Below are positions 6,259 to 29,690 of a stretch of DNA of 64,000 nt, in pieces. The notes beneath the pieces are model-generated. The model did not search any database. It saw only the letters and a list, made by a program, of their open reading frames with translations, and had not been told where the DNA came from. The stretch's first letter is position 1. Each line of letters starts with the position of its first letter. This stretch comes from Nakamurella alba (GTDB lineage Bacteria; Actinomycetota; Actinomycetes; Mycobacteriales; Nakamurellaceae), in the NCBI RefSeq assembly GCF_009707545.1, contig NZ_WLYK01000006.1, forward strand, positions 310,001 through 374,000, read 5' to 3'. The translations under genes were made by a program, and so were the position numbers.

Positions 6259-7985
6259 GCCGACACCACCTCCCGGCGGGTGCCGCGCAGCGCGGTGGTG
6301 GCGGTCAGGTCGGCGGCGAAGGTCTCGGGGTCCACGACCACACCGTAGTCCGCGGCCGCGGCACCGACGGAGACGAACCCGTTCCGCACGTCGGCGGCCA
6401 CCCGCTCCGGCTCCCGGTCCAGCGGATCGCCGTAGCCGCCGCCACCTCCGGTGTTGTTGACCAGCACGTCGCCGGCGTCCAACAGGTTGTAGCTGCCGCC
6501 CTGCGTCGCCTCGCGGTCGGTGCCGGGATTGAGCACCACGTGGTTGTTGTCGCCCTCCAGCCCGCCGTCGATGGACCAGGGCTTCGTCTTCGTCTTGTAG
6601 ACCAGGCAGATGCCGGTGGACGGGGCGGTGAACCGGTAGGAGCGGCCGACGCCCACGCCGCCGCGGTTGCGCCCGGCACCGCCGGAGTCCGGCCGGTAGC
6701 CGTAGGACTCGATGAACATCGGGGACTTGGTCTCCAGCACCTCGACCGGGTTGTTCCGGCACCCCGGCTCGGACAGGTGCATGATCCCGTCCGCACCGTC
6801 GCCGCCCGCGTGGCCGCCGAAACCGACGGCCTCGTTGGTGGCCTCGAGCCAGTGCTCGCCGTTCCGCGGGTTGACCCCGAGACCCATCATCGAGCAGACG
6901 TCGCCGCCGGAGCAGGCCGGCACCAGGTCCGGCATGCCCTTGGCCAGCGCCTTCAGGATCACCTCGCCGGCCAGCAGGCCGGTCCACAGCGTGAAGGTCG
7001 GCATCGGCGGCACGGCGTGCATCACCGAACCGGCCTCGGTGATCACCCGCAGCGGTCGGAAGTTGCCGGCAACTACCGGGCTGTCGGGGGTGGTCATCGC
7101 CTTGAAGATCAGGCTGCACAGCGCCTCGGTCTGGCCCAGCGGCAGGTTGATCGGGCCGCGGACGTTTTTCGCGCTGCCGGTCCAGTCGACGATCATCTCG
7201 TCGTCGGTGACGGTGACCGTCACGTTCAGGTCGATCAGCCGGTCCAGCTCGACGCCGTCGTTGTCGACGAAGTCCGACGCCGACCAGGTGCCCTTCGGCA
7301 GGCCGGCCAGCGCGATCCGGGCCAGCTTCTCGCCGTGGTCGTTGATCGAGACCATGGCCTGCGCGAGGGCGTCCACCCCGTACTTGTCGGCGATCTCGAT
7401 GGTCCGCCGGACACCGCTGACGCACGCGGACACCTGCGCCTGGATGTCACCGATGGTGCGCTCGGGCAGCCGGCTGTTGTACCGGATGATGTTGAAGATG
7501 TCGTCGTTGATCACACCCTCGCGGTAGAGCCGCACGCCGGGGAAGAACAGGCCCTCCTGGTACATGTCGGTGGAGTCGAGCACGTAACCCGGGTCCTTCT
7601 GCTTCAGGTCCAGCACGTGGATCCGGCAGGAGGTGTAGCCGATCAGTTCGCCGTCGACGTGGATCGGTGCGAAGACCAGCGGGTCCAGGGTGTGCGCCGA
7701 GCTCCAGTAGGGGTAGTTCAGCAGGTAGACGTCGCCGGGCAGCATGGCCTCGATCCCGAGGAACTCCACGGCGCGCTTGATGCCGTGGTCGTTGCCACGG
7801 GTGAAGATGGCGATGCCGGGGGCGTCGGCCACGACATCGCCGTGCACGTCGTGGATCCCGATGCCGTAGTCGTGGATCTCGTAGACGACGGTGTTGTAGG
7901 CGGTGCGGCAGAGGTTGCGGGCCATCTCCTCGGCGGCGGCCAGCAGGCCGTGCCGGATGATCTCGGTGGTGATCGCGTCGTTCAT
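6255..7985 (-). CDS. hyuB: Hydantoinase B/oxoprolinase-family subunit (HyuB)
   Basis: A 576-residue HyuB-family protein. It begins ITTEIIRHGLLAAAEEMARNLCRTAYNTVVYEIHDYGIGI, the standard opening, and carries GDVYLLNYPYWSSAHTLDPLVFAPIHVDGELIGYTSCRIHVLD and the C-terminal SYGYRPDSGGAGRNRGGVGV and GGGGGYGDPLDR. With HyuA it forms enzymes that open cyclic amides at the expense of ATP (N-methylhydantoinase, 5-oxoprolinase) or carboxylate ketones (acetone/acetophenone carboxylase). It lies 46 bp after hyuA and overlaps the amidohydrolase by 4 bp. The adjacent amidohydrolase favours a cyclic amide or ureide substrate over a ketone. Confidence 0.92.
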   Translation of the reverse strand: MNDAITTEIIRHGLLAAAEEMARNLCRTAYNTVVYEIHDYGIGIHDVHGDVVADAPGIAIFTRGNDHGIKRAVEFLGIEAMLPGDVYLLNYPYWSSAHTLDPLVFAPIHVDGELIGYTSCRIHVLDLKQKDPGYVLDSTDMYQEGLFFPGVRLYREGVINDDIFNIIRYNSRLPERTIGDIQAQVSACVSGVRRTIEIADKYGVDALAQAMVSINDHGEKLARIALAGLPKGTWSASDFVDNDGVELDRLIDLNVTVTVTDDEMIVDWTGSAKNVRGPINLPLGQTEALCSLIFKAMTTPDSPVVAGNFRPLRVITEAGSVMHAVPPMPTFTLWTGLLAGEVILKALAKGMPDLVPACSGGDVCSMMGLGVNPRNGEHWLEATNEAVGFGGHAGGDGADGIMHLSEPGCRNNPVEVLETKSPMFIESYGYRPDSGGAGRNRGGVGVGRSYRFTAPSTGICLVYKTKTKPWSIDGGLEGDNNHVVLNPGTDREATQGGSYNLLDAGDVLVNNTGGGGGYGDPLDREPERVAADVRNGFVSVGAAAADYGVVVDPETFAADLTATTALRGTRREVVSA

Positions 7986-8031
7986 GTGCGGTGGGACTCC
8001 TCGGACTCGGGTGCGGTCGGTGGGTCGGGGA

Positions 8032-10077
8032 TCAGAGGCCGGGGCGGTCGCCGACGGTGATGACCAGCTCGCCGTGCGGGCCGACCAGCAGGTGGTCGCC
8101 GGCATGCATGACGGTGGTCGCCGTGTGCTCCGGAATGACTGCGGGACCGTGGATCTCGTCGCCGGCCAACAGGTTCTCCCGGGTGTACAGGGCGTAGTCG
8201 ACCGAGGGCTGCGCGGCGGAGACGTACACGGCGCGGCTGCCCTCGGCGACCGGCTCACCGGACTCCCGGGCGGCCAGCAGCGGCAGCTCGGGCCGGTCCA
8301 CGATGCCCCGGGCACGCAGCCGCAGGGTGGTGACCTCGACCGGATCGGTCATCACGTGGCCGTACTGCCGCTCGTGCAGCTCCGCGAACTCCTTCTCCAC
8401 CTGGGCGATGTCGCCGCCGGTGGACGGGAACCCGATGGTCACCGAGTGCTCCTGGCCCGAGTACCGGACGTCGACCAGCCGGACCATCTCCTGCCGGTCC
8501 GGGCCGAAGCCCTCGGACTCCAGCTGCGCCAGCGCTTCTGACTCCATCCCGGCGAAGGTCTGCTGCATGGCGACCGGGTCGGTGTCGGACAGCAGCATCA
8601 CCGCGGTGCGGGCGTAGTCGTGCTGTACGTCGGCCATCAGCATGCCGAAGGCGCTGAACGCCCCCTGGCCCGGTGGGACGACCACCGTCGGGATGCCCAG
8701 GGCCTCGGCCACGTCGACGGCCACCAGGCCGCCACCCCCGCCGAAGGACAGCAGCGCGAAGTCCTGCGGGTTCCGGCCCACCTCGACGGTGATCGCCCGG
8801 ACCGCGCCCATGATCTTCGTGGTGGAGATCTGCAGCACGCCGCGGGCCAGCTCCGACCAGGTCATCCCCAGCTCGCCCGCGGTGATCTCCAGTGCGGCGA
8901 CGGCCTTCTCGCGGTCCAGCACCAGCTTGCCGCCCAGCGGCGTCTCGGTGCCCAGGTAGCCGACGGCCAGCGCGGCGTCGGTGAAGGTGGCCTGGGTCCC
9001 GCCGCGGCCGTAGGAGGCCGGGCCGGGCATCGCCCCGGCGCTCGCGGGACCGACCTGCAGGGCACCCGCCTTGTCCAGGTGCACCAGGGATCCGCCGCCG
9101 GCGCCGATGGTGTGGATGTAGAGCGACGGGGTGTTGATCGGCATGCCCTCGAACTCGGCGCCCTGGTAGAGCACCGGCTCGCCGTCCAGCACCAGCGAGG
9201 CGTCCAGACTGGTACCGCCCATGTCGATGGTGATCAGGTTCGGCTGGCCGATCAGGCCGGCCAGTGCACCGGCGCCGATGACGCCGCCCGCCGGTCCGGA
9301 CAGGATCAGGCTCACCGGCTGCTCCCGCGCCGTGCTCGCCGTCATCGCGCCGCCTCCTGACCGCGTCATCAGGAAACGACCCTCGAAACCCTCGTCGGTG
9401 AGCCGAGTCTCGAGCTCCGCCAGGTAGCGGCGGACGATCGGCTTGACGTAGGCGTCCAGCACGGCGGTGCTGGTCCGCTCGAACTCCCGGTACTCCCGGG
9501 ACAGCTCGTGCGAGAGCGTCACGACGACGTCCGGCGCGTGCGCGGCGAGCACCTCGCGCATGGCCACCTCGTGCGCCGGGTTGGCGTAGGAGTGCAGGAA
9601 GCAGACCGCGACCGCGTCGTAGCCGCGCTCGGCGACGATCCGGGCCACCCGGGCGGCGTCCTCGAGATCGATGTCCTGGTGCACACTCCCGTCGAACAGG
9701 CTGCGCTCGGCCACCTCGAAGGTGTCGTACCGCTCGAGCAGCGGCGTCGGCGGCGTGAAGGTGATGTCGTAGTTGGTCCGGCGGTCGGTCCGGCCCAGCA
9801 GGTAGACGTCACGGAAACCCTTGGTACCGATGACGGCGATCCTCGCGCCGGTCCGGGTCAGCAGCGCATTGAGACCGAGAGTCGTTCCGTGGGTGAACAT
9901 CACGATCTCGCCGATGCCGGCCTCGGTGACGCCGAACGCGTCCAGCACGCCCTTGGTGGGTTCGGACGGCGTGGTGGGCACCTTGTCGAACCGCAGGGTG
10001 CCGGTGTCCGGCTGCAGTTCGACGACATCGGTGAAGGTGCCGCCGACGTCGATCGCGACCCGGGTGATCCTGCTCAT
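8032..10077 (-). CDS. hyuA: Hydantoinase A/oxoprolinase-family ATPase subunit (HyuA)
   Basis: A 681-residue HyuA-family protein with an ASKHA-type ATPase core. The first phosphate loop VAIDVGGTFTDVV lies at the N-terminus, SGPAGGVIGAG is near residue 270 and the second phosphate loop TIDMGGTSLDASL follows, so both nucleotide loops are intact. The segment EFERTSTAVLDAYVKPIVRRYLAELETRL is the usual inter-domain helix. HyuA hydrolyses ATP to activate the substrate opened by HyuB. ATG at 10077 is preceded by AAAGG at a long spacing. It is the first gene of the hyuA-hyuB-amidohydrolase operon, with a 725-bp control region upstream shared with the plus-strand ABC operon. Confidence 0.93.
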   Translation of the reverse strand: MSRITRVAIDVGGTFTDVVELQPDTGTLRFDKVPTTPSEPTKGVLDAFGVTEAGIGEIVMFTHGTTLGLNALLTRTGARIAVIGTKGFRDVYLLGRTDRRTNYDITFTPPTPLLERYDTFEVAERSLFDGSVHQDIDLEDAARVARIVAERGYDAVAVCFLHSYANPAHEVAMREVLAAHAPDVVVTLSHELSREYREFERTSTAVLDAYVKPIVRRYLAELETRLTDEGFEGRFLMTRSGGGAMTASTAREQPVSLILSGPAGGVIGAGALAGLIGQPNLITIDMGGTSLDASLVLDGEPVLYQGAEFEGMPINTPSLYIHTIGAGGGSLVHLDKAGALQVGPASAGAMPGPASYGRGGTQATFTDAALAVGYLGTETPLGGKLVLDREKAVAALEITAGELGMTWSELARGVLQISTTKIMGAVRAITVEVGRNPQDFALLSFGGGGGLVAVDVAEALGIPTVVVPPGQGAFSAFGMLMADVQHDYARTAVMLLSDTDPVAMQQTFAGMESEALAQLESEGFGPDRQEMVRLVDVRYSGQEHSVTIGFPSTGGDIAQVEKEFAELHERQYGHVMTDPVEVTTLRLRARGIVDRPELPLLAARESGEPVAEGSRAVYVSAAQPSVDYALYTRENLLAGDEIHGPAVIPEHTATTVMHAGDHLLVGPHGELVITVGDRPGL

Positions 10078-10563: not shown

Positions 10564-10577
10564 TGCAAGCGTTTCCA
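10564..10577. promoter_or_regulatory. LacI-family-consensus operator
   Basis: TGCAAGCGTTTCCA fits the general LacI/GalR operator form TGnAAnCGnTTnCA at every fixed position. It lies 226 bp upstream of the ABM gene that opens the ABC importer operon. No LacI gene is adjacent; the only one in the window is at 59530, whose own palindrome has a different sequence, so the regulator is unknown. Confidence 0.5.
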
Positions 10578-10620
10578 CCGTGGAACAGATGCGTGACACA
10601 GCACACCGGACGGTTGTCCT

Positions 10621-10639
10621 GTTGTGCTCGGAGCACAAC
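10621..10639. promoter_or_regulatory. Perfect 19-bp palindrome, probable operator of the ABC operon
   Basis: GTTGTGCTCGGAGCACAAC has two 9-bp arms that are exact reverse complements around a single G. A one-base centre cannot form a hairpin loop, so this reads as a dimer-binding DNA site, not a terminator. It lies 164 bp upstream of the operon start. The PucR-type regulator encoded at the end of the operon is one candidate binder. Confidence 0.6.
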
Positions 10640-10802
10640 GCGGCCCGGGTGGCCGGGTCCAGCATTCCCATTCATCCCAGCTTCCACTCGGGTTCGAAGC
10701 CCGACACGAAGCCGGCACCACCACCGCATCACCCCTGCACCACCCGGCAGCACCCGGTCTCCGATGACATCCATCGGCCGGCCCGAGAACTGGGAGGAAA
10801 GC

Positions 10803-11141
10803 ATGATCCGCAGCGTCCTGACCCTGTGCGGCAGGGACGGACGAGTCGAACCGATCGAGGACTACTACCGCGACCACCACATCCTCGACCGTGCACGAGC
10901 ATTCCCCGGCTGCCGGAACGCCACTCTGCTGCGGGCCGTGGACGGAGGTCGCGCGACCCACCTGGTCATGGCCGACTGGGACGACACCGAGGCCTACGGG
11001 CGCTGGGTGTCCGATCCTTTCCGGCAGCAGACCTCGGTCGGCCTGAAGGAACTGCTCGACCTGGAACCGGGCGCGCAGTTCGTCGGCGGCCTCTACGAGA
11101 TCCTCACGCCGGACAGCGATCCCGCACCGTCCGGTCCCTGA
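10803..11141 (+). CDS. ABM/EthD-like small ferredoxin-fold protein
   Basis: A 112-residue protein, MIRSVLTLCGRDGRVEPIEDYYRDHH followed by LDRARAFPGCRNATLLRAVD and HLVMADWDDTEAYGRWVSDPF, with the beta-alpha-beta layout and the W/Y/F pattern of the antibiotic-biosynthesis-monooxygenase/EthD dimeric alpha-beta-barrel superfamily. No cofactor site is visible. ATG at 10803 follows GGGAGGAA with good spacing. It is the first gene of a run through to 19107 and precedes the importer genes by 145 bp, so it probably acts on the imported compound or a derivative. Its exact reaction is unknown. Confidence 0.78.
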   Translation: MIRSVLTLCGRDGRVEPIEDYYRDHHILDRARAFPGCRNATLLRAVDGGRATHLVMADWDDTEAYGRWVSDPFRQQTSVGLKELLDLEPGAQFVGGLYEILTPDSDPAPSGP

Positions 11142-11146
11142 AGCAC

Positions 11147-11182
11147 TCACCGAACCAGTCACTGAACCTGTCCCTGAACCCC
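11147..11182. repeat. Three imperfect 12-bp tandem repeats
   Basis: TCACCGAACCAG, TCACTGAACCTG and TCCCTGAACCCC lie head to tail immediately after the ABM stop codon and 105 bp before the binding-protein gene. They have no dyad symmetry. They could be a slipped duplication or a repeated regulator half-site. Confidence 0.6.
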
Positions 11183-11286
11183 TGCACCGCAGCACATCCC
11201 GACAGCACCGCACCGACACCGGGGTCGGACCAGCACCACCTGCACCGCACGTCGAGTCCCCCGCATCCCGTCCGCAGAGGAGCAGC

Positions 11287-12399
11287 ATGAAGAGCACCAC
11301 CCGTCGGTTGACCGCCACCATGGCGGCCGCCGCGCTCACCCTGTCGATCGCCGCGTGCAGCCGGCCGTCGTCCTCCGGCGGCTCGGAGACGACGACCGCG
11401 GCGGCCACCACCACCGCCGCCGGATCCAGCGGCGGCTCGGCCACCAGCGCCTCCGGGTCCGACACCGGCCCGGCCACCGCCTCCAGCGGCGGTGACACCG
11501 GCGAGGAGCTGTCGGTCGGCTTCTTCGGCTTCGCCAAGGCGAACTCCTTCGCCCAGGCGACCTGGGCCGGCGTGCAGGAGGCGGCTGCGGCGAACAACGC
11601 CACCGCCACCTTCCTCGACTCCAATTTCGACGGCCCGACCCAGGTCAACCAGCTCCAGGACGCGGTGACGTCCAAGCTGTACGACGTCGTGGTCATCCAG
11701 GCCAACGACGGCACCGCGATCGTCCCGGCGGTCAAGCAGGCGCTGGCCGCCGGCATCACCGTGGTCGTCGAGTTCACCCCGATCGGCGGCCGGTACGACA
11801 CCATCGAGCCGCAGGTGGACGGCGTCATCAGCATCGTCGACGCCCCGACCATCAACGGCGAGGGCCTGGCCGAGATGGCGCTCGGCGCCTGCGAGCAGCT
11901 GGCCGTCCAGCCGTGCAACGTCGCCTACCTGCAGGGCTTCGACAACTACCCGCTGGACGCCGCCCGCACGAAGGCCGCCGAGGACGCCATCAAGGCCGGC
12001 GGCGCCGAACTCGTCGCGTCGGTCATCGGTGGCTACACCGCCGACTCCGGCCGCACCGCCTTCCAGAACGTGCTGCAGGCCCACCCCGACGTCAACGTCG
12101 TGGTCGGTTCGTCCCAGGCCATCACCGGGGCGGCCGCGCTGGCCCCGGACCGTGACGACCTGCTGTTCGTCGGCAACGGCGGATCCACCCAGGCCTTCGA
12201 GGGCGTGATGTCCGGGAAGTGGTACGGCACCTACAACATCCCGGAGAAGACCGAGGGCTACCGCGCCACCGAGATGGGCCTGGCCGCGCACCGTGGCGAG
12301 ACCGTCCCGACGGCGACCGACGCCCGTAGCCTCACCACCTACGAGGCGCTGGGCACCAAGGAGAACCTGACCGGCCAGACGGCGGACTACTCCGACTGA
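11287..12399 (+). CDS. CUT2-type ABC importer substrate-binding lipoprotein
   Basis: A 370-residue exported lipoprotein. The N-terminus MKSTTRRLTATMAAAALTL leads to the lipobox LSIAAC with lipidated Cys24, then a Ser/Thr/Gly linker to about residue 75. The mature part has the Peripla_BP_4 pattern: SVGFFGFAKANSFAQATWAGVQEAA, VVVIQANDGTAIVPAVKQALAAGITVV and NVVVGSSQAITGAAAL. Relatives bind ribose, other sugars or autoinducer-2, but here it travels with hydantoinase-like genes, so a non-sugar ligand is possible. ATG at 11287 follows GAGGAG. A strong hairpin follows the stop, which may stabilise or limit the message between this gene and the ATPase. Confidence 0.92.
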   Translation: MKSTTRRLTATMAAAALTLSIAACSRPSSSGGSETTTAAATTTAAGSSGGSATSASGSDTGPATASSGGDTGEELSVGFFGFAKANSFAQATWAGVQEAAAANNATATFLDSNFDGPTQVNQLQDAVTSKLYDVVVIQANDGTAIVPAVKQALAAGITVVVEFTPIGGRYDTIEPQVDGVISIVDAPTINGEGLAEMALGACEQLAVQPCNVAYLQGFDNYPLDAARTKAAEDAIKAGGAELVASVIGGYTADSGRTAFQNVLQAHPDVNVVVGSSQAITGAAALAPDRDDLLFVGNGGSTQAFEGVMSGKWYGTYNIPEKTEGYRATEMGLAAHRGETVPTATDARSLTTYEALGTKENLTGQTADYSD

Positions 12400-12405
12400 G
12401 CCGGT

Positions 12406-12440
12406 GTCCCTCCCCGGCTGGACGACGGCCGGGGAGGGAC
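12406..12440 (+). terminator. Strong hairpin between binding-protein and ATPase genes
   Basis: Arms GTCCCTCCCCGGC (12406-12418) and GCCGGGGAGGGAC (12428-12440) pair perfectly over 13 bp with a 9-nt loop, starting 6 bp after the binding-protein stop. There is no T tract. In importer operons a hairpin here commonly lets the binding protein be made in excess of the membrane components, by partial termination or mRNA protection. Confidence 0.75.
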
Positions 12441-12518
12441 CTGCAGACCGGCGGCGCCGGGCAGGGTCCATGACGGTCCTGCCCGGCGCCGCCACCGCAC
12501 GAGACGACAGGTGGACAC

Positions 12519-14120
12519 GTGAGCACTGCCAGAGCGACGTCGCCGTCCGGACCCGAGAGGCGGCACGCGCCGTCGATCTCGGTCCGGGACATCGGCAAGA
12601 CCTACAGCGGTGTCACCGTCCTGCAGGGCATCGACCTGGACATCCCGGGCGGTGAGATCCACAGCCTGGTCGGCGAGAACGGCGCTGGGAAGAGCACCCT
12701 GCTCAAGATCCTCGGCGGCGTCATCCGGGCCGATGCGGGCACCATCGCGTTCGACGGCACCGTCACCGCGATCGGCACCCCGCGCGACTCGATCCGGCAC
12801 GGCGTCAGCCTGATCTCCCAGGAGGGCGCACTGGTCCCGGCGCGCACCGTGCTGGAGAACGTCTTCCTGGGCCGCTGGGCGCAGCGCGCCGGCTGGGCCC
12901 GGACCCGGGACGACCGCCGCCGCTTCGCCGAACTCCTGGACTACACCGGCTTCTCGATCGACCCCGGCGCCCGCGTCGACCAGATCTCGATCGGCGCCCA
13001 GCAGCAGGTCGAGATCCTCCGCTCGCTGGCCCGCGGCGCGTCGGTGATCGCGATGGACGAGCCGACCGCCGTGCTCACCGAGCACGAGAAGAAGAACCTG
13101 CTCGACCTCATCCGCCGGCTCGCCGCCGCCGGCACCACCGTGCTGCTCGTCTCCCACTTCCTGGACGAGGTGCTGTCCGTCTCCGACCGGATCACCGTGC
13201 TGCGCGACGGCCGGCACGTGATCACCGAGCAGGCCTCCGCGCTGGACCCCGCCTCCCTGGTCGCGCACATGGTCGGCCGGCAGATCGACGTCCTCTACCC
13301 CACGCCCGCACCCGTCCGCGACGACGCGGCGGTCCGCCTGTCCGCCCGCGGGCTCGGTCGCGGCCCGGTGCAGAACGTCGACCTGGAGGTCCGCGCCGGC
13401 GAGATCCTCGGCATCGCCGGCCTTGTCGGCAGTGGTCGGAGCGAGACGCTGCGGCTGCTGTTCGGCGCGGACAAGGCGAGCACCGGCACCGTCACCCTGG
13501 ACGGGGTCACCCTGACCGGACTGAGCCCGCGCAAGGCGATGGCCGCCGGGATCGCACTGGTCCCGGAGTCCCGCAAGGAGGAAGGGCTGGTGCTGGGCCG
13601 GTCGGTCCGGGAGAACGTCGCGCTGGCCTCGCTGGGCACCCGGCGCACCGGCCCGTTCGTCGACCGGGGCACCGAACGCACTGCGGTGCAGACGATCTCC
13701 GGCACGGTGGACATCCGTGCCGCTGCCCCGGACGCCCCGATCCGCACGTTGTCCGGTGGCAACCAGCAGAAGGCACTGTTCGCCAAGTGGCTGCTGCGCC
13801 GCCCGCAGGTGCTGCTGGTCGACGAGCCCACCCGTGGCGTCGACGTCGCGGCGAAGACCCAGATCCACCGACTCATCGTCGATCTCGCCGCCGAGGGGAT
13901 GGCCGTGGTGGTCGTCTCCTCCGAGATCGAGGAGCTGCTGGAACTCTCGCACCGCGCCCTGGTGCTGCGGCACGGCCGCATCGTCGGCGAGTTCCCCCGC
14001 GGGACCCCCCGGGAGCGGGTGATCGCCGCCGCCTTCGGCGACCACCCCGAGGACGCCGGCCCCACCTCGTCCACCACGCCCGGCCCGTTCGCGAAGACCC
14101 CTGAAGGAGAGCACGCATGA
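12519..14120 (+). CDS. CUT2-type ABC importer ATP-binding protein (tandem ATPase, RbsA/MglA-like)
   Basis: A 533-residue fusion of two ABC ATPase domains. The first has Walker A GENGAGKST (52-60), a variant signature ISIGAQQQVEI and Walker B VIAMDEPTAVL. The second has the altered Walker A GLVGSGRSE usual in CUT2 proteins, signature LSGGNQQKALFAKWL and Walker B VLLVDEPTRGVD. It powers import at the membrane with the permease encoded next. GTG at 12519 is the only start that keeps the first domain intact. Its stop overlaps the permease ATG by 4 bp. Confidence 0.94.
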   Translation: MSTARATSPSGPERRHAPSISVRDIGKTYSGVTVLQGIDLDIPGGEIHSLVGENGAGKSTLLKILGGVIRADAGTIAFDGTVTAIGTPRDSIRHGVSLISQEGALVPARTVLENVFLGRWAQRAGWARTRDDRRRFAELLDYTGFSIDPGARVDQISIGAQQQVEILRSLARGASVIAMDEPTAVLTEHEKKNLLDLIRRLAAAGTTVLLVSHFLDEVLSVSDRITVLRDGRHVITEQASALDPASLVAHMVGRQIDVLYPTPAPVRDDAAVRLSARGLGRGPVQNVDLEVRAGEILGIAGLVGSGRSETLRLLFGADKASTGTVTLDGVTLTGLSPRKAMAAGIALVPESRKEEGLVLGRSVRENVALASLGTRRTGPFVDRGTERTAVQTISGTVDIRAAAPDAPIRTLSGGNQQKALFAKWLLRRPQVLLVDEPTRGVDVAAKTQIHRLIVDLAAEGMAVVVVSSEIEELLELSHRALVLRHGRIVGEFPRGTPRERVIAAAFGDHPEDAGPTSSTTPGPFAKTPEGEHA

Positions 14121-15112
14121 ACGCCCCCCTGGCGACCGACGGCGCCGCCGTCGTCACCGGTGCCGTCCCGGCCCGGCGCGCCGTCCGGATCCGCGACTAC
14201 GGCATCGTCATCGCCCTGCTCGCGATCGTGGTCGCGCTGTCGGTCTCCACCGACACCTTCCTCACCACCTCGAACCTGGTGAACCTGCTGGACCAGTGCT
14301 CGGTGGTCGGACTGCTCGCCGTCGGCGCGACGGTCTGCATCATCAGTGGCGTCTTCGACCTGACCGCCAGCGCGAGCCTGGCCGTCAGCGCGATCGTCGG
14401 TGTGCAGATCGTGCAGTTGACCAACGTGCCGGTCGGGTTCGCGGCCGCCGTGGTCACCGGCGCACTGCTCGGCCTGATCACCGGCACCATCGTGGTCAAG
14501 AGCGGCGTGAACTCCTTCATCGCCACACTGGCCACCAGCATCATCTACCGCGGCCTGGCCGTGGTCGTCACCGCCGGCGCCATCGCCTACCCGCTGACCG
14601 AGCAGGCCGAGGACTTCGGGATGCTCACCTGGCCGTCGCTGTTCGGGATGACCTCGGCGACCCTGGTGTTCCTGGTCGTCGTCGCGATCATCTGGACGAT
14701 GATCTCGGCGACCACCTTCGGCCGCCGGATCTACGCCGTCGGCGGCAACGCGGAGGCAGCCCGGCTGTCCGGGATCCGGGTGGGCCAGGTGCAGATCGCG
14801 GCCTATGTGGTCAGCGGCATCTGCTCGGCACTGGCCGGTCTGATCCTGGCCTCCCGCGCCGGATCGGCGCAGTCCAGCATGGCCACCGGCCTGGAACTGT
14901 CCGCCATCGCGGCGGCCGTCATCGGCGGCACGAGCATCCTGGGCGGCGAAGGTGCGGTCTGGCGAGGTGTGGTCGGCGCCCTGCTGCTCACGCTGATCGG
15001 CAACGGCTTCAACCTGCTCGGCTGGGACACCACCTACCAGCAGGTGGTGCAGGGCTGCCTGATCCTGCTGGCCGTCACCGTGGACCAGTACCTGCGCCGC
15101 CGCAACCGGTAG
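14117..15112 (+). CDS. CUT2-type ABC importer permease (RbsC-like)
   Basis: A 331-residue membrane protein of the RbsC/BPD_transp_2 family with about nine to ten hydrophobic segments. Family hallmarks include the early STDTFLTTSNLVNLLDQCSVVGLLAVGATVCIISGVFDLTASASLAV and the later AVGGNAEAARLSGIRVGQVQIAAYVVSGICSALAGL, the EAA-like loop that docks on the ATPase, and GGTSILGGEGAVWRGVVGALLL. It forms the pore as a homodimer. Translation is coupled to the ATPase by an ATGA overlap. Confidence 0.93.
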   Translation: MNAPLATDGAAVVTGAVPARRAVRIRDYGIVIALLAIVVALSVSTDTFLTTSNLVNLLDQCSVVGLLAVGATVCIISGVFDLTASASLAVSAIVGVQIVQLTNVPVGFAAAVVTGALLGLITGTIVVKSGVNSFIATLATSIIYRGLAVVVTAGAIAYPLTEQAEDFGMLTWPSLFGMTSATLVFLVVVAIIWTMISATTFGRRIYAVGGNAEAARLSGIRVGQVQIAAYVVSGICSALAGLILASRAGSAQSSMATGLELSAIAAAVIGGTSILGGEGAVWRGVVGALLLTLIGNGFNLLGWDTTYQQVVQGCLILLAVTVDQYLRRRNR

Positions 15113-15121
15113 CGTGGCCCG

Positions 15122-16480
15122 GTGCGCCTGCCGGACCGCCACCGCGACGTCGTGCTCGGCATCGGGCTCGACGACCGGGCGACGCACGTCGCCGTGGTCC
15201 CGATGGACGCACCGGGCCTCCCCCTCCCGGATTATCACCACCAGCACCCGCACACCGACCCGGACACGGTCCTCGGGCTCACGGCCGCGCGGATCGCGGC
15301 CACTGCCGCCCCCGGGGAACCTGCCCTCCGGGTCGTCGCCGTCACCGTCGACCTGAGCCGCCCGCTGCGGGCCGCGGTGGCCCCCGGTGGCGCGGCCACC
15401 GGCACCGTAGCTGCGATCCGGATCGTGCCGCGGCCGGCCGAGAACCGTTCGCTGCGCGGACACCCGGCCCGGTCGGTCGAGGACCTGGTCCGGCAGAGGT
15501 TCACCGTCACCGGTGGCCACGACCTGTTCGGCCGCGAGCTGCGTCCGCTCGCCGTGGACCGGATCCGTTCCCTCATCGATGATCTCGACCTGTCCGTGCT
15601 CGGCGGCATCGCCGTCGTCGGCACCGGGTCGCAGGCCGAGCCGCGACATGAGCGCGAGCTCGCCGACCTGGTGCAGACGGCGCTGCCGGAGGCCAGGATC
15701 TCGGTGGCCGGCGACTTCGGTGGCCAGGGCCTCGTCGCACGGGAGGCGAGCGTGGTGCTCAACGCCGCGCTGACCGGTGTCGTCGAGCCACTGCTCGTCG
15801 CCTGGGTTCTCGCGGTGTCCCGACACTTCCCTGGCGCCGCGCTGCGGATCGCCCGGAGCGACGGCGGCTGGTCCACCCCGGCCTGGATCGGCGCGATGCC
15901 GGTGCTCGGGCTCGGTGCCCGGGACTCGCTGCGGTTGCTCGGCGCCGCCACCGTTGCCGGCCTGCCGGACTGCCGGATCCTGCTGCCCGCAACGGGTTCG
16001 TCTGCGGACGCGACGGTCGGCGAGGTCCGCCGCCGGCTGGTGACCGCACGCCCGCACGTGAGCACCGAACTGGGTGCCGAACTGGTGGTGCCGCTCCCGG
16101 TCCTCACCCCCTACCGCCGGTCGGCGCAACCCGGCGGCCCGTCCGACGTCACCGAACGGCACCACCGCGACGTGCCCTGGGTGGACGCGAGCGAGTCGGA
16201 CCAGGACCTGCTCGTCTGCATCGGCGCGGCCGTCACCCGGCCGTCGGCGTGGCTCGACGAGATCGCGGTGATCGACTCGGTGCCACGCCTGGAGCAGGTC
16301 AGCCGGGACCTGCAGGCGCGGGCCACCGCGATCGCGACGGCCAACGGCGTCGCCCCGGGATCGGCCGCGGTGGTGGAGATGTCGACCGTCGCCGTGCCCT
16401 ACAGCCCGGCCGGGACGGTGCGGATCCGGGTGCGGGTGTCCGGACCCGACCCCATCACCGTGCAGGGGGTGGACCTGTGA
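15122..16480 (+). CDS. HyuA-like protein with eroded nucleotide-binding loops
   Basis: A 452-residue protein that follows the layout of DUF917-associated HyuA/oxoprolinase proteins but lacks their ATP loops. The N-terminal strand VVLGIGLDDRATHVAVVPMD occupies the place of I-DVGGTxTD. PVLGLGARDSLRLLGAATVAGL aligns with the usual P-SGP-NS-RGAA-LSGL region, and CRILLPATGSSADATVGEV replaces VVDVGGTTTD-G. GDFGGQGLVAREASVVLNAALTGVVEPLL matches the inter-domain helix. These alignments are from memory of the family. It is 9 bp after the permease and overlaps the DUF917-like gene by GTGA, so the two are probably partners. Catalysis by ATP hydrolysis looks unlikely; a structural or ligand-binding role is possible. 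Confidence 0.65.
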   Translation: MRLPDRHRDVVLGIGLDDRATHVAVVPMDAPGLPLPDYHHQHPHTDPDTVLGLTAARIAATAAPGEPALRVVAVTVDLSRPLRAAVAPGGAATGTVAAIRIVPRPAENRSLRGHPARSVEDLVRQRFTVTGGHDLFGRELRPLAVDRIRSLIDDLDLSVLGGIAVVGTGSQAEPRHERELADLVQTALPEARISVAGDFGGQGLVAREASVVLNAALTGVVEPLLVAWVLAVSRHFPGAALRIARSDGGWSTPAWIGAMPVLGLGARDSLRLLGAATVAGLPDCRILLPATGSSADATVGEVRRRLVTARPHVSTELGAELVVPLPVLTPYRRSAQPGGPSDVTERHHRDVPWVDASESDQDLLVCIGAAVTRPSAWLDEIAVIDSVPRLEQVSRDLQARATAIATANGVAPGSAAVVEMSTVAVPYSPAGTVRIRVRVSGPDPITVQGVDL

Positions 16481-17586
16481 CCGGGCAGCAGGTCTCGCCC
16501 TACGTCGGCGCCGCGGCGGTGGTGACGGCCGATGACGTGGCCGCCTACTACGAGGGCGCCACCTTCTACTCCCCCGCCGACGGCAATGCCAGCAAGGCCT
16601 CGCTGATCGACTGGGTCGCCTCGCTGATCGACGACACCGGACCGGTGGTGCTGCACCGACCGGCCGCCCTGCCCGCCGACGCGTTGTCGGCGGCGATCTG
16701 CGTGATCGGCTCCGGGTCGGCGCTGGCCGACCTTCCACCCTCCGGTGACGAGTTTTCCGGTGCGGTCCGGGAACTCGAGCAGCATGTCGGCGGCCGCATG
16801 GGCGCGGTCTACCCGCTCGCCGCCGCCACGGTCAGCGCGATGGCCCCGCTGGCGGCCGCCGCCGACCTCGGCGTCCCGCTGCTGGACTGCGACGGGATGG
16901 GCCGCACCTTCGCCCTGGTCCACCACACCGCGATGCACCTCGGTGGCATCTCCACCGGGCCGCTGGTGATGCGCGGGGCGACCGGCGAGTCGGTCCTGAT
17001 CGAGGCACCGGACCCGGCCCGGGCCGACGCACTGGCCCGGCCGTCGGTCGAGGTACTCGGCGGCTGGGCCGCTTTCGCCGGCTACCCCGGCCCGATCGGC
17101 GCACTCACCCGGGCTGCGCTACCCGGTACGGTCTCCCGGTTGATCAACGTCGGCCGGCTGCTGATGGAACCGGGCGAGGCGGACGTGGTGGTCGGCCGAC
17201 TGTCCGCGATCACCGGTACCCGGCGGATCGGCCGCGGCCGGATCGTCGAGCTGGAACACCTCTCCCGGCCGACCGACTTCACCGTCCCGGCCCACCCGTC
17301 CAGTGTCATCATCGACGAGAGCGGTGGCGCCATCCTGCGTCTCGAGCTTCGGAGCGAGGTCGTCGCGGTGTTCTCCGACGGCGCACTGACCGCCGCCGCC
17401 CCGGATCTGGTGTGCCTCTTCGACGTCGACCGCGGTCGGTTGTCACCGCTGGACAGCCTGCAGCCCGGTGACCTGGTGGACGTGCTGGTGACGCCGGCGG
17501 ACGGAGTCTGGTACTCGCCGGAGGCCCTCGCGATGGTCGGCCCGGCCAGCCACGGGATCCCCCTCGACCACCCCAGGAAGCGCTGA
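16477..17586 (+). CDS. DUF917-like (S-methylthiohydantoin desulfurase-family) protein, divergent
   Basis: A 369-residue protein resembling DUF917. VTADDVAAYYEGATFYSPADGNASKA opens it, MGAVYPLAAATVSAMAPLAAAADLGVPLLDCDGMGRTFA matches the family core (E/N-GA--PL-AA-LG-P--DADGMGRAFP), and the C-terminus RLELRSEVVAVFSDGAL then DLVCLFDVDRGRLSPLDSLQPGDLVDVLVTPA fits the second domain. The Gly-rich AVLGTGGGG stretch normally near the N-terminus is replaced by FYSPADGNASK. DUF917 proteins travel with HyuA-type partners and include an enzyme acting on thiohydantoins. GTG at 16477 overlaps the preceding stop. The reaction is unknown. Confidence 0.7.
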   Translation: MTGQQVSPYVGAAAVVTADDVAAYYEGATFYSPADGNASKASLIDWVASLIDDTGPVVLHRPAALPADALSAAICVIGSGSALADLPPSGDEFSGAVRELEQHVGGRMGAVYPLAAATVSAMAPLAAAADLGVPLLDCDGMGRTFALVHHTAMHLGGISTGPLVMRGATGESVLIEAPDPARADALARPSVEVLGGWAAFAGYPGPIGALTRAALPGTVSRLINVGRLLMEPGEADVVVGRLSAITGTRRIGRGRIVELEHLSRPTDFTVPAHPSSVIIDESGGAILRLELRSEVVAVFSDGALTAAAPDLVCLFDVDRGRLSPLDSLQPGDLVDVLVTPADGVWYSPEALAMVGPASHGIPLDHPRKR

Positions 17587-17589
17587 TCG

Positions 17590-19107
17590 ATGCGACAGAT
17601 CCCCACCCCCGCATTGGATCTGACCGAGCTGCTGCGCGTCGAACCGCTCGCGTCCACCCAGGTCGCACACCGCAGCCAGGTCGGTCGGCAGGTGCTGCAC
17701 GTGGATCTGGCGGAGTCGTTCGACCGGATCCGGGCGCTGCCGCCGCACTCGGTGGTGGTGCTGCACGCCGAGGCCGCCTCGGGCGGCTGGTCGCTGGCCG
17801 CGGCGCTGCAGATCGCCTGGCAGCGCAACGCCGCCGCGGTGGTCGTCCCGCCGTCGGCGATGAGCGGGTCCAGCCGGATCCTGGCCGAGCGGCTCGACAT
17901 CACCCTGCTGGTGCACGATGCCGACCCGGTGGACATCGCCCTCACCGTCGCCGGGCAGCTCAGCCAGCCGCGGGCCACCCGGGCGTTGCGGGTGGCCCAG
18001 TGCGCCGAGCGGCTGGCCGAACAGACCGGCGTCCGTGGGGTGCTCGGGGTGCTGGGCGGCGAACTCGCCCCGGTTCAGGTGGCACTCGTCGCCGGCAGCA
18101 CCGTGCTCGCCGGTCGGTCCGCCGCACTCGACGATCGCCCCGATCACCAGCAGGTGCGGGTGGCGGTGCACGGCGCCGGCGGGCACCTGTGGGGCGAGCT
18201 GGTCGCCTCCGTCCCGCCGGGCTCGCCGACCGGCGTCGACATGGTCGAATCGCTGCTCTCACTCGGCCGTCTGCCGGTGCTGGCGGCCTGGGCACAGAGC
18301 CGGATGCAGCCCGCGCAGCGACTGGAGCAGGAGCAGGCGTCGTTCCAACTGCTGCGGCGGATCGGGGAGGGCGAACCGGGCACGCCCGAACCCGCGGTAC
18401 AGCGGGCGGAGGAGTCGACGCCGGAGTGGGTGGGTGAGCTCGGCTGGCGGATCGACGGGATGAACCGGGCCCTCTGGGTGACCGGGGTCGCCAACACCGG
18501 CGAACCTGCACCGGAGCTGACCCACCTGGTGCGGTCGACCTGGTCCCGGCTGCTGCCGGACTGGCCCATCGCACCCGACGAGGACGGCTGGGTCAGTTGG
18601 TGGAACGGTCCGGCCGACCGGCCCGCGGCCGTGCGCAAGGCGGTACGGACCCTGGAGGACGTGCTGACCCGGCACGGTCTGGTCGCCGGCGTCGGCACCG
18701 CCCGGCGCGGGGTGTCCGGCCTGCTGCGCTCCACCTCGGAGGCACGGCTCGCCGCGCACGTGGCCCGGTCGGCAGGGGCCGGCACCGTGCAGTGGTTCGA
18801 GCAGACCGGGGTACGGTCCGCGCTCGCCTGGCTGCCGGTGGCGCAGATCGCGGAGGTCGCCGACCTCTGCCTGGCCGACCTGGTGTCGGCGAAGGATCGC
18901 ACCGCACTCGTCGAGACCGCCCTCGCGGTGCTGGATTCCGGTGGGTCGCTGAGCCAGGCGGCGCAGCGCCTGGGGGTGCACCGCAACACCGTGCTCGCCC
19001 GGGTGGCCCGGGCGCGCGAGCTCGGCGTCGTCTCCGACGACCCTGCGCAGCGACTGGCGCTGCACGTGCTCTGCTACGCGCTCGACACCCTCTGGCGCAC
19101 AGGCTGA
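17590..19107 (+). CDS. PucR/CdaR-type transcriptional regulator
   Basis: A 505-residue regulator ending in a PucR-type HTH_30 domain: ALAVLDSGGSLSQAAQRLGVHRNTVLARVARARELGVV near residues 440-475, followed by RLALHVLCYALD. The N-terminal 120 residues resemble a PucR ligand domain (VVVLHAEAASGGWSLAAALQIAWQRNAAAVVVP). The middle holds a GGDEF-like/CdaR-type fold without catalytic motifs. PucR proteins control purine and ureide use in bacilli and actinobacteria. It starts 3 bp after the DUF917-like gene and is the last gene of the importer operon, so it probably senses the imported ligand or its product and may bind 10621-10639. It converges on the GH16-like gene with a single base between stops. 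Confidence 0.85.
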   Translation: MRQIPTPALDLTELLRVEPLASTQVAHRSQVGRQVLHVDLAESFDRIRALPPHSVVVLHAEAASGGWSLAAALQIAWQRNAAAVVVPPSAMSGSSRILAERLDITLLVHDADPVDIALTVAGQLSQPRATRALRVAQCAERLAEQTGVRGVLGVLGGELAPVQVALVAGSTVLAGRSAALDDRPDHQQVRVAVHGAGGHLWGELVASVPPGSPTGVDMVESLLSLGRLPVLAAWAQSRMQPAQRLEQEQASFQLLRRIGEGEPGTPEPAVQRAEESTPEWVGELGWRIDGMNRALWVTGVANTGEPAPELTHLVRSTWSRLLPDWPIAPDEDGWVSWWNGPADRPAAVRKAVRTLEDVLTRHGLVAGVGTARRGVSGLLRSTSEARLAAHVARSAGAGTVQWFEQTGVRSALAWLPVAQIAEVADLCLADLVSAKDRTALVETALAVLDSGGSLSQAAQRLGVHRNTVLARVARARELGVVSDDPAQRLALHVLCYALDTLWRTG

Positions 19108-19876: not shown

Positions 19877-19926
19877 GGCCTGCACCGGGCCGGACCGCCG
19901 GTCGGACAACTCGGCCGTTCGCACCG

Positions 19927-20178: not shown

Positions 20179-20244
20179 GGGCCCGACGATAGACCGAGCC
20201 GTCTGTGTCGGGGAGGTGCCGCCGACGGACCCGGCCGCCACCCA

Positions 20245-20276
20245 CCCCTGCCCGACCGATCTCGGCCGGGCAGGGG
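20245..20276 (-). terminator. Hairpin terminator after second hyuAB operon
   Basis: Arms CCCCTGCCCG (20245-20254) and CGGGCAGGGG (20267-20276) pair perfectly, and the stem extends by a further CCG/CGG after one mismatch. It begins 8 bp past the hyuB stop at 20284 on the minus strand. No T tract is present, as is common in high-GC terminators. Confidence 0.75.
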
Positions 20277-20283
20277 CGATGGA

Positions 20284-21963
20284 TCAGCCCGCGCCCACCC
20301 CGTAGCGGGAGAGGGCTGCAGCGGGGGTGATGTGGCGGTCGAGGAGGTCGGCCTCGACGTCGGCGGTGGAGCGGTCGGTGGGATCGCCGTAGCCGCCGCC
20401 ACCACCGGTGGCGCAGCGGATGACATCTCCTGCGGTGATGGCGGTCCCGTTGACCTTCAGCATCCGGCGCTCGTCCGCCCGGCCGGGGTTGATGACCACG
20501 TCCGGCCCGATCGCGTCCTCGCCGCCGAAGAGGCCCCACGCAGGCTGCCGGGAGCGCTCGAACCAGAGCGACACGGTGCAATCGGTGAGTGCCTCGTACT
20601 CACGCACCACCCCGTTCCCGCCACGCCAGCGTCCGGCGCCGCCGGAGTCCGGCCGCACCTGGTAGGTGGTGATGCGGAAGGGGTACCGGGTCTCCAGCAC
20701 CTCGACCGGCAGGTCCTTCAGCGAGCCGTTGACGTTGTTGATCAGCGCGCTCTCGCCGTCGGAGCCGTCCCAGGCACCCCAGCCGCCGAGAGTGGCCTCC
20801 AGCGAGACGAACTCGCGACCGGTGCGTGGATCGGTGCCGGCCGTGAGCACGATCATCGAGTCGCCGTGCGACGCACCGGCCACCCGGTCCGGCATCGCCG
20901 GGGCGAGCGCCCGGGCCACCATGTCGATCAGCAGTCCGAGGTGGGAGAAGTACCACTGGCAGGCGGCCGGGGCGATCGCGCCCAGCACCGAGCCTTCACG
21001 CACCTGGGTGGTCATCGACCGGAAGGACCCGCCGTTGCCCGGCAGGTCCGGGCTGACCAGCAGCTTGTAGCCCACCCGCAGTGCCGACACCGCCTGCGCC
21101 ACACCGCAGTTGACCGGACCGGTGGCCTGGTCCGCGGACTCGGTGACGTCGAAGTCGATGTCCTCGCCGGTCACCGTCACCCGCAGCTTGATCGGGATCG
21201 GGCTGTCCAGGTCGATGCCGTCGTTGTCCAGCACACCCTCGGCCGCGTACACCCCGTCAGGGATCGCCGCGATCACGGCGCGCTCGAGAAGCTCCGTCTG
21301 GCGGAAGATCTCGTCCCGCGCCGCCTCCAGCGTCTCCAGCCCGAACCGGCGGACCAGGGCCGAGAGCCGGGCGTCGCCCATCTTGATGCAGGCGATCATC
21401 GCGTGCATGTCGCCCATGGTCGGGTACGGGAACCGGACGTTGGTGGCGATGACGTCCATGATCGAGCGGACGTCCTTGCCGCCCTCGACGAGTTTGTGCG
21501 CGCCGAGCCGCAGCCCCTCCTGGAAGATCGAGGTGGAGTCCATCGACCCGCCCGGGTCCTTGGATCCCACGTCGATCCAGTGCGCCCGGGTCGCGGTGAA
21601 CCCGACCAGCAGCTCGTCGACGAACACCGGCCCGAAGATGGTCACGTCGTTGAGATGCGTGCCGCCGAGGTAGCTGTCATTGAGGATCCAGACGTCACCC
21701 GGCTCCCAGACCTCGCGCCCGAAGCGCTGCTCGGTGGCCCGGGTGCAGGTCTCCAGGTTGCCGAGGAAGATCGGCAGGCCGGCCGACTGGCCGAGCACCT
21801 GGTGGTCGCTGTCCAGCAGAGCGACCACGCAGTCACCGCCCTCGTAGATGATCGGGGTGTAGGCGGAGCGGATCAGCGTCGCGTTCATGTCGTCCGCCGC
21901 GGAGTTCAGTGCGTTGCGGATGATCTCGACGGTCACCGGGTCGATGGCGGTGGCGGTGGTCAT
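20284..21963 (-). CDS. hyuB: Hydantoinase B/oxoprolinase-family subunit (second HyuB)
   Basis: A 559-residue HyuB-family protein. The opening IDPVTVEIIRNALNSAADDMNATLIRSAYTPIIYEGGDCVVALLD is standard, followed by GDVWILNDSYLGGTHLNDVTIFGPVFVDELLVGFTATRAHWIDVG and the C-terminal VRPDSGGAGRWRGGNGVVREY and GGGGGYGDPTDRS. It differs clearly from the 6255-7985 copy, so the two pairs probably have different substrates. Typical-length HyuB proteins run 550-600 residues. ATG at 21963 overlaps the hyuA stop by 4 bp, and a hairpin follows the gene. Confidence 0.92.
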   Translation of the reverse strand: MTTATAIDPVTVEIIRNALNSAADDMNATLIRSAYTPIIYEGGDCVVALLDSDHQVLGQSAGLPIFLGNLETCTRATEQRFGREVWEPGDVWILNDSYLGGTHLNDVTIFGPVFVDELLVGFTATRAHWIDVGSKDPGGSMDSTSIFQEGLRLGAHKLVEGGKDVRSIMDVIATNVRFPYPTMGDMHAMIACIKMGDARLSALVRRFGLETLEAARDEIFRQTELLERAVIAAIPDGVYAAEGVLDNDGIDLDSPIPIKLRVTVTGEDIDFDVTESADQATGPVNCGVAQAVSALRVGYKLLVSPDLPGNGGSFRSMTTQVREGSVLGAIAPAACQWYFSHLGLLIDMVARALAPAMPDRVAGASHGDSMIVLTAGTDPRTGREFVSLEATLGGWGAWDGSDGESALINNVNGSLKDLPVEVLETRYPFRITTYQVRPDSGGAGRWRGGNGVVREYEALTDCTVSLWFERSRQPAWGLFGGEDAIGPDVVINPGRADERRMLKVNGTAITAGDVIRCATGGGGGYGDPTDRSTADVEADLLDRHITPAAALSRYGVGAG

Positions 21964-24011: not shown

Positions 24012-24317
24012 ACGGCTCTCCCATCGACTGGACGTGGCGACAGACTAGGGATCGACCGACCGGGCCCGATGTGCGGTGCGCCCACCTCGCGGCGTCGGGT
24101 GCGTGCTCCGCGCACTGTTCGGCGGGATGGTCCACCTGCGGGTCGAGACACAAAGGTGCCCAACGTTTCCGGACACCCCGGATTTCGATACCGCACAGGT
24201 ATCCGGATCGTCGGCCCGGCGAGTGGACGACGCGGTTCCGGCGGTCGGTTTCATCCCGGACACGGCACGATCGACCCGCCCGGCCCGAGCAGGTACTTGC
24301 CGCCGCAACCGGCCCGA
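24012..24317. other. Intergenic region upstream of second hyuAB
   Basis: This 306-bp gap separates the xanthine dehydrogenase stop from the second hyuA. No open frame in it has a recognisable domain or good ribosome site. I see no strong hairpin or long palindrome; it presumably holds the hyuAB promoter. Confidence 0.5.
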
Positions 24318-29682: not shown

Positions 29683-29690
29683 GACAACGA

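What the first reader, a model, noticed from the sequence alone, without database searches (positions are those of the whole stretch)
10803..19107. Candidate undescribed uptake-and-processing operon: ABM protein, CUT2 importer, degenerate HyuA-like and DUF917-like pair, PucR regulator
Seen: seven plus-strand genes with short gaps or overlaps after the first. A ribose-type ABC importer is joined to a HyuA/DUF917-like pair and a PucR-type regulator, beside a normal hyuAB operon. Known: CUT2 importers usually bring sugars, while HyuA/DUF917 and PucR are tied to hydantoins and purine-derived ureides. Inference: the importer takes up a cyclic amide/ureide or its riboside, and the pair binds or processes it. 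I do not know this gene set as a described pathway.
Basis: partly seen in the sequence, partly recalled or inferred. Interest (0 to 1): 0.7.

Follow-up and report, generated by a model that had tools for sequence, protein, structure and literature searches.

The report
Cyclic-amide uptake and catabolism island
Soil bacteria carry a conserved, jointly controlled gene island that probably imports a small cyclic compound, most likely a cyclic dipeptide, opens its ring with ATP and cuts the product, and that keeps a pair of apparently dead enzymes beside its regulator, perhaps as a sensor.

Summary
The seven genes are real and correctly placed. They form the middle of a larger conserved island: prolidase-hyuB1-hyuA1 (minus) | ABM-SBP-ATPase-permease-HYUx-DUF917-PucR (plus) | hyuB2-hyuA2 (minus). 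HYUx, DUF917 and PucR occur together in all 28 named loci fetched, 22 with the complete importer. A palindrome, TGTGC-N5-GCACA, lies between hyuA1 and the importer operon in 23 of 23 islands examined, and related site pairs precede hyuA2 in 16 of 23, so the flanking hyuAB genes probably share the regulon. A leucyl aminopeptidase lies beside hyuA2 in at least 11 of 28 genomes. Two ATP-dependent ring-openers with peptidase partners point to cyclic dipeptides more than to purine ureides; this evidence is only genomic, and one distant relative sits in a pyrimidine cluster. HYUx lacks recognisable ATP-site motifs in 31 of 31 sequences, and DUF917 lost conserved motifs, yet both are under purifying selection. 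I read them as a pseudoenzyme pair, probably a sensor for PucR. New variant of a known kind; substrate and sensor role untested.

The parts
5065..6258 (-). Prolidase-type amidohydrolase (cog1228-like), ATGA overlap with hyuB1 stop
   Evidence: PF01979 143.8 bits; NCBIfam Xaa-Pro dipeptidase NF051886 219.5 bits, below its cut-off of 500; PDB 3mkv E 3e-85 and 3feq/3n2c E 8e-82; 63% to the L034 homologue
6255..8060 (-). hyuB1, hydrolase subunit of an ATP-dependent cyclic-amide hydrolase (start set by homology)
   Evidence: PF02538 497 bits; CapB family NF050157 216.9 bits, cut-off 1000; metal-ligand motif H..D...H visible
8032..10077 (-). hyuA1, ATPase subunit (start set by homology)
   Evidence: PF01968/PF05378/PF19278; CapA NF050156 480 bits, cut-off 1000; phosphate and adenosine motifs present
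10601..10605 (.). second half-site GCACA, 32 bases upstream of the right half of the main operator
   Evidence: similar half-site at the same distance in most of the 24 regions printed
10623..10637 (.). operator TGTGC-N5-GCACA between hyuA1 and ABM
   Evidence: 23 of 23 such regions, absent from one block shuffle of each; single copy in 64 kb, 0.05 expected
10803..11141 (+). ABM / dimeric alpha-beta barrel-like protein, role unknown
   Evidence: PF03992 E 0.003, below cut-off; in 18 of 28 loci
11287..12399 (+). CUT2-type lipoprotein substrate-binding protein
   Evidence: PF13407 121 bits; no NCBIfam sugar equivalog cut-off reached
12519..14120 (+). CUT2-type ATPase (two ABC domains)
   Evidence: PF00005, two stretches; best NCBIfam AraG 479 bits, cut-off 689
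14117..15112 (+). CUT2-type permease
   Evidence: PF02653 141 bits
15122..16480 (+). HYUx: HyuA-fold protein without recognisable nucleotide site
16477..17586 (+). DUF917 / S-Me-THD-like protein without the conserved GTGGGG and E-x-GG-x-N motifs
17590..19107 (+). PucR-type regulator, the proposed reader of the operator
   Evidence: HTH_30 and GGDEF_2; in 28 of 28 loci
20284..21963 (-). hyuB2
   Evidence: PF02538 549 bits; CapB NF050157 270 bits, cut-off 1000
21960..24011 (-). hyuA2
   Evidence: PF01968 326 bits; CapA NF050156 494 bits, cut-off 1000; close homologue (E<1e-200) in 3 of 296 class genomes, the same 3 with the strongest HYUx matches
24070..24084 (.). operator-like site upstream of hyuA2, 1 mismatch
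24102..24116 (.). second operator-like site, 32 bases further upstream, 2 mismatches

Best explanation
The island is one regulon for uptake and breakdown of a small cyclic amide, most likely cyclic dipeptides (2,5-diketopiperazines), perhaps proline-containing ones. The CUT2-type importer brings the compound in. Two intact caprolactamase/hydantoinase-type enzymes (HyuAB1, HyuAB2) activate and open the ring with ATP. A prolidase-type amidohydrolase, and in many genomes a leucyl aminopeptidase, cut the linear dipeptide. PucR binds the tandem TGTGC-N5-GCACA sites and switches on both the central operon and hyuA2B2. HYUx and DUF917 descend from an ATPase/DUF917 enzyme pair but have lost conserved, probably catalytic, motifs; they most likely bind the substrate or an intermediate and inform PucR. 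Shown here: gene content, conserved order, operator conservation, lost motifs, purifying selection. Inferred: substrate, PucR as operator reader, sensor role.
For: Trio in 28 of 28 named loci, complete importer and hyuA1B1 in 22. Prolidase beside hyuB1 in 20 of 28 held loci and elsewhere in two more genomes, so in all 22 genomes that carry hyuA1B1 and the full importer; of the 6 named genomes without hyuA1, none has a match at E 1e-60 except a 44% homologue in L061. Its best solved relatives are prolidases, reported to cut Xaa-Pro dipeptides (PMC11511702, passage). Leucyl aminopeptidase beside hyuA2 in 8 held loci and in 3 further genomes; in L047 and L055 it is at the locus edge. L034 (31% HYUx) has another order but still has importer, trio, HyuAB2 and prolidase on one strand. 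Operator in 23 of 23 regions; perfect sites before hyuA2 in the importer-less Streptomyces L065 and L068 and near the broken hyuA2 of L066; site pairs 32-33 bases apart before hyuA2 in 16 of 23 rows; two perfect sites 32 bases apart upstream of HYUx in G285. HYUx motifs absent in 31 of 31, median pN/pS 0.24.
Against: No substrate was tested. Nearest solved relative of both HyuA proteins is an N-methylhydantoinase (7hk5, E 4e-117 and 1e-119), ahead of caprolactamase (3e-105 and 2e-115). L067 carries binding protein, permease and trio inside a dihydropyrimidinase cluster, and its assembly has no close hyuA2. [quoted passage not shown] L061, L065, L066, L068 and G285 have the trio and hyuA2 but no close prolidase, and at least 15 of 28 named genomes showed no aminopeptidase beside hyuA2. 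In the window genome the nearest such aminopeptidase is on another contig. The exact palindrome is not rarer genome-wide than its reversed control. CUT2 importers are known mostly for sugars (recalled). That PucR binds the operator rests on co-occurrence only. L035 keeps a GGGG stretch in DUF917 and 5 of 11 aligned members keep the N of E-x-GG-x-N.
Confidence: 0.45

Rival explanations
1. The substrate is a hydantoin, dihydropyrimidine or other cyclic ureide. HyuAB opens it to an N-carbamoyl amino acid and the prolidase-type amidohydrolase removes the carbamoyl or acyl group.
For: Nearest solved HyuA relative is N-methylhydantoinase; L067 puts the trio in a pyrimidine cluster; xanthine dehydrogenase, urease and purine permeases lie downstream in this window; 5 of 24 ordinary DUF917 loci have a permease that looks NCS1-type by its sequence (type recalled).
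Against: The window's xanthine dehydrogenase, urease alpha and purine permeases have no match in 30 held relatives' loci (the held flank beyond hyuA2 is a few kb at most). The recurrent partners are a prolidase-like amidohydrolase and an M17 aminopeptidase, neither known to me as a carbamoylase (recalled).
Confidence: 0.27
2. HYUx-DUF917 is still an enzyme, working without ATP, for example a racemase, desulfurase or hydrolase that prepares the ligand for HyuAB. (This concerns the pair and is compatible with either substrate.)
For: Both are conserved under purifying selection (median pN/pS 0.24 and 0.15); DUF917 relatives are named thiohydantoin desulfurases in NCBIfam; invariant charged and polar residues remain; one distant DUF917 (L035) keeps a GGGG stretch.
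Against: ATP-site motifs of HYUx are gone in 31 of 31 sequences and the segment after the second phosphate motif is shortened in the nine aligned. In 11 aligned island DUF917 proteins the glycine-rich motif is gone in 10 and the E of E-x-GG-x-N in 11; that these are catalytic is inferred.
Confidence: 0.28
3. The island handles a plain lactam or another cyclic amide outside both classes, such as a valerolactam-like or pyroglutamyl compound.
For: Best NCBIfam match of HyuA1 and HyuA2 is caprolactamase CapA.
Against: Scores are half the caprolactamase cut-off (480 and 494 against 1000 bits); the peptidases would have no clear role.
Confidence: 0.13
4. Importer and hyu genes are neighbours without a shared pathway; the importer carries a common sugar.
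For: CUT2 families are mostly sugar importers (recalled); solved relatives of the binding protein are mostly sugar binders at weak E-values.
Against: Importer and trio together in 22 of 28 loci over many genera, short gaps or overlaps from ATPase to PucR, shared operators.
Confidence: 0.05

Closest known systems
Caprolactamase CapAB (Pseudomonas jessenii; PDB 6yra)
   Same: HyuA1/HyuA2 and HyuB1/HyuB2 share its families, ATP motifs and metal-ligand motif
   Different: Bit scores about half (A) or a quarter (B) of the curated cut-offs; here two pairs, with importer, peptidases and regulator around
N-methylhydantoinase (PDB 7hk5, 9h03)
   Same: Nearest solved sequence relative of HyuA1 and HyuA2
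   Different: One chain of 1288 residues; here two separate two-gene pairs
S-methyl thiohydantoin desulfurase / DUF917 (PF06032, NF058532; PDB 2o3i)
   Different: 34 bits against cut-off 450; conserved motifs lost; partner is not an intact ATPase
cog1228 prolidases Sgx9260b/c (PDB 3mkv, 3feq/3n2c)
   Same: Strong similarity of the 5065-6258 product over most of its length
   Different: Coupled by overlap to an ATP-dependent cyclic-amide hydrolase
ROK repressors such as Mlc (ASKHA fold turned regulator)
   Same: Idea of a kinase-like fold turned sensor; the HYUx model also aligns to some of these

Membership tests
ATP-dependent cyclic-amide hydrolase (HyuAB/OplAB/CapAB), for HyuAB1 and HyuAB2 | Both subunits with their Pfam domains | tested here: met
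ATP-dependent cyclic-amide hydrolase (HyuAB/OplAB/CapAB), for HyuAB1 and HyuAB2 | ATP-site motifs in A, metal-ligand motif in B | tested here: met
   DxGGTFTD, DMGGTSxD and GAGGGS in the window's HyuA1 and HyuA2; H..D...H in HyuB1 and HyuB2 of the window and three relatives; ligand residues as given in PMC8453981 passages
Caprolactamase equivalog | NCBIfam cut-off of 1000 bits | tested here: not met
   480/494 (A) and 217/270 (B) bits
ATP-dependent HyuA ATPase, for HYUx | Phosphate and adenosine motifs | tested here: not met
   absent in 31 of 31; the one string match, in L068, lies in a low-complexity insert; the second-phosphate pattern also missed the real motif of HyuA1, so that point rests on the alignment of nine HYUx proteins
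HyuA fold, for HYUx | Overall fold | tested here: met
S-methyl thiohydantoin desulfurase | NCBIfam cut-off 450 bits | tested here: not met
   34 bits
PF06032/PF20906 (DUF917) family | Pfam gathering score | tested here: met
   86 and 101 bits, cut-off 27 each
Xaa-Pro dipeptidase NF051886 | NCBIfam cut-off 500 bits | tested here: not met
   219.5 bits; characterised cog1228 prolidases are close solved relatives
CUT2 importer | Peripla_BP_4 protein, double ABC ATPase, BPD_transp_2 permease | tested here: met
CUT2 importer | Sugar as substrate | not testable with these tools
   no sugar equivalog cut-off reached
Cyclic dipeptide catabolic system | Ring opening of a diketopiperazine by the enzymes | not testable with these tools
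   genomic inference only

The most novel reading that the evidence does not exclude
HYUx-DUF917 is a former cyclic-amide enzyme pair turned into a catalytically dead sensor complex that reports the ligand to PucR at tandem TGTGC-N5-GCACA operators, in a cyclic-dipeptide regulon with two ATP-dependent ring-openers, each with its own peptidase partner, fed by a CUT2 importer that carries no sugar.
Probability: 0.25. Interest if true: 0.72.

Novelty: new variant of a known kind. Interest (0 to 1): 0.55.

Why it matters
How bacteria import and degrade the very common cyclic dipeptides is poorly known; [quoted passage not shown] This island offers named candidates for importer, ring-openers, peptidases and operator that can be tested at once. 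It would also give a clear case of a two-subunit pseudoenzyme kept under selection beside a regulator, and a lead on what the widespread DUF917/HyuA pairs do.

Tried and rejected
Purine link through the downstream xanthine dehydrogenase and urease: no match in 30 held loci, which hold only a few kb beyond hyuA2. Ergothioneine-type thiohydantoin desulfurase: score far below cut-off; the paper searches for that term gave nothing on it. Sequence search of the single DUF917 protein against solved structures: nothing; the profile found 2o3i. ORF 4625-5884 as the amidohydrolase: no match; the true gene is 5065-6258. Canonical DUF917/HyuA neighbourhoods (24 loci; 20 of them picked by hand for spread from the list) as a guide to substrate: mixed, with PucR-type regulators in 12, an OppB-like permease in 8, an NCS1-like permease in 5 and an M19 dipeptidase in 3, so they do not decide it. 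The names of the OppB-like and NCS1-like clusters are my reading of sequence, not a library result. A perfect second palindrome beside the 10623 operator: only a half-site. Importer homologues without the pair: not tested. Papers: PMC11055893, PMC6061476, PMC3852281, PMC8453981 and PMC11511702 were seen as found passages only; all others as search listings. From memory and not verified: reports of bacterial cyclic dipeptide hydrolases in the oxoprolinase superfamily may exist outside the held library; the library holds no paper with both 'diketopiperazine' and 'oxoprolinase'.
Full report
OBSERVATION. The seven genes exist at the stated coordinates. Gaps are 145, 119, -4, 9, -4 and 3 bases. DUF917 starts at 16477 and overlaps HYUx by four bases. 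The ABM call is weak by Pfam (18 bits, cut-off 23.1), but a homologue sits in the same place in 18 of 28 relatives.

THE ISLAND IS LARGER. A scan of the genome-contig collection with a HYUx alignment gave 28 loci (records of the window's own or near genomes may be left out there). A tblastn survey found HYUx, DUF917 and PucR in 28 of 28, binding protein in 23, ATPase in 22, permease in 24 and the complete importer in 22. L041 is a 3.8 kb contig, so its importer cannot be judged. hyuA1 and hyuB1 are present at 60% identity or more in 22 and lie divergently upstream. hyuB2 is found in 21 and hyuA2 in 20 held loci; a search of eight genomes found hyuA2 in six more, including L056, where the locus ends early. 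So 26 of 28 carry it; it was not found in the assemblies of L041 and L067. Presence in L066 counts genes that are broken there. In an even sample of 296 genomes of the class, close hyuA2 homologues (E<1e-200) occur in three genomes, the same three that have the strongest HYUx matches (1e-289, 5e-38, 5e-25; the next is 1e-16 and looks like an ordinary HyuA). One search scored at most three candidates a genome and five. In G285 the trio and hyuA2B2 lie near the ends of two contigs, so their adjacency is only compatible.

A MISSED GENE. Clustering of flanking frames showed an amidohydrolase next to hyuB1. tblastn places it in 20 of 28 loci, in L034 and in the window, at 5065-6258 on the minus strand; three of the 20 are cut by the locus edge (L042, L048, L062). 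Its start ATG overlaps the hyuB1 stop as ATGA. Its nearest solved relatives are 3mkv and 3feq/3n2c, prolidases that hydrolyse Xaa-Pro dipeptides and also N-acyl-prolines (PMC11511702, passages). Genome searches found an orthologue in L050 and L064 at about 70% identity, not shown to be adjacent, a 44% homologue in L061, and none at E 1e-60 in L041, L065, L066, L067, L068 or G285. It thus accompanies hyuA1B1 and the importer in 22 of 22 named genomes. L064, whose locus has 1.8 kb beyond hyuB1, lacks it there.

A SECOND PEPTIDASE. A leucyl aminopeptidase (PF00883; NCBIfam leucyl aminopeptidase below cut-off) matches in 10 of 28 held loci. In 8 of these (L042, L049, L050, L054, L057, L058, L060, L061) it lies divergently beside hyuA2; in L047 and L055 it is at the locus edge. 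In the genomes of L051, L052 and L053 it lies beside hyuA2 on the same contig. So adjacency is shown in 11 of 28. One search examined 21 genomes (18 of the 28 named, the window's, G281 and G285) and found a match at E 1e-90 in 7; in L048, L062 and L063 its place relative to the island was not established, and in the window genome it is on another contig.

REGULATION. Comparison of 23 regions between hyuA1 and the importer operon (19 with ABM, 4 Amycolatopsis without; each drawn with 60 bases of hyuA1) gave one gapped word above the rest: TGTGC-N5-GCACA in 23 of 23, absent from one block shuffle of each region, whose commonest word reached 4. In the window it is 10623-10637, the only copy in 64 kb (0.05 expected) and one of three in the 6.05 Mb genome, where the reversed control pattern occurs five times; in eight other genomes counts are mostly like the control. 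So the pattern is not rare genome-wide; its force lies in its constant place. Its centre is 72-76 bases before ABM in 16 of the 19 with ABM; the window (173), L063 (114) and L062 (64) differ. A half-site recurs 32 bases upstream in most. Upstream of hyuA2, 16 of 23 rows have two sites with up to 2 mismatches, 32-33 bases apart, the window included (24070, 24102); L034 and L062 have one; L080, L043, L046, L059 and L066 none, of which L043, L046 and L059 end at hyuA2 and L066 is broken. A random 270-base stretch has a 2-mismatch site in 14% of cases, so single weak sites mean little; the fixed spacing is what counts. Streptomyces L065 and L068, without importer, carry a perfect site about 67 bases before hyuA2, and L066 one upstream of its broken hyuA2. 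PucR is the only regulator that I saw in all of them, so I infer that it reads the site.

MECHANISM. The window's HyuA1 and HyuA2 keep ATP motifs and HyuB1 and HyuB2 the metal-ligand motif. By family knowledge they activate a cyclic amide with ATP and hydrolyse it. Pairing with a prolidase and an aminopeptidase makes a cyclic dipeptide the most economical substrate. Authors of the caprolactam work thought it possible that many genes annotated as 5-oxoprolinase are lactamase or cyclic dipeptide hydrolase genes (PMC6061476, passage). A study of cyclodipeptide oxidases found DUF917 genes enriched near oxidase-like genes together with peptide transporters and peptidases, while itself favouring hydantoin- or allantoin-like substrates (PMC11055893, passages). 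In this genome (L039) and in L061 an ordinary DUF917 locus carries an M19 dipeptidase and a PucR-type regulator. Against this stand L067 (pyrimidine cluster) and the nearer N-methylhydantoinase match. I give cyclic dipeptides 0.45 and cyclic ureides 0.27. For the pair, retention beside PucR in all 28 loci, even where the importer is gone, with loss of conserved motifs, suggests a sensor; a remaining enzyme activity is not excluded.

NOVELTY. The parts are known kinds; the combination, the operator and the pseudoenzyme pair were not found described in the held papers, a limited library. I rate it a new variant of a known kind.

Noticed in passing
window 19109-20581 (-): A GH16-like frame (PF00722, 28 bits) lies between PucR and hyuB2 in the window; no match in 30 held relatives' loci, many of which have the two genes abutting or nearly so.
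   Followed up: partly
window 24318-42276 (-): Purine and urea cluster downstream: xanthine dehydrogenase, urease alpha, malate synthase, xanthine/uracil and NCS1-type permeases; the dehydrogenase, urease alpha and permeases have no match in the held loci of relatives.
   Followed up: partly
L039 (own genome C1:658000-676000) 8310-14087; L061 1478-7406; L088: Ordinary DUF917 loci with an M19 dipeptidase and a PucR-type regulator, a lead that DUF917 pairs may act on peptide-derived rings.
   Followed up: partly
L067 57-15840: A distant binding protein, permease and trio, with no ATPase match in the held stretch, sit inside a dihydropyrimidinase cluster of Wenjunlia tyrosinilytica.
   Followed up: partly
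L066: In Streptomyces philanthi the island's DUF917, PucR and hyuA2 match only in several pieces, as if decaying.
   Followed up: no
G000:C1:248581 and C1:1923295: Two further exact TGTGC-N5-GCACA sites in the genome; neighbouring genes not examined.
   Followed up: no
L084, L085, L086: Two or three DUF917-cluster genes in tandem beside one HyuA-like gene.
   Followed up: no
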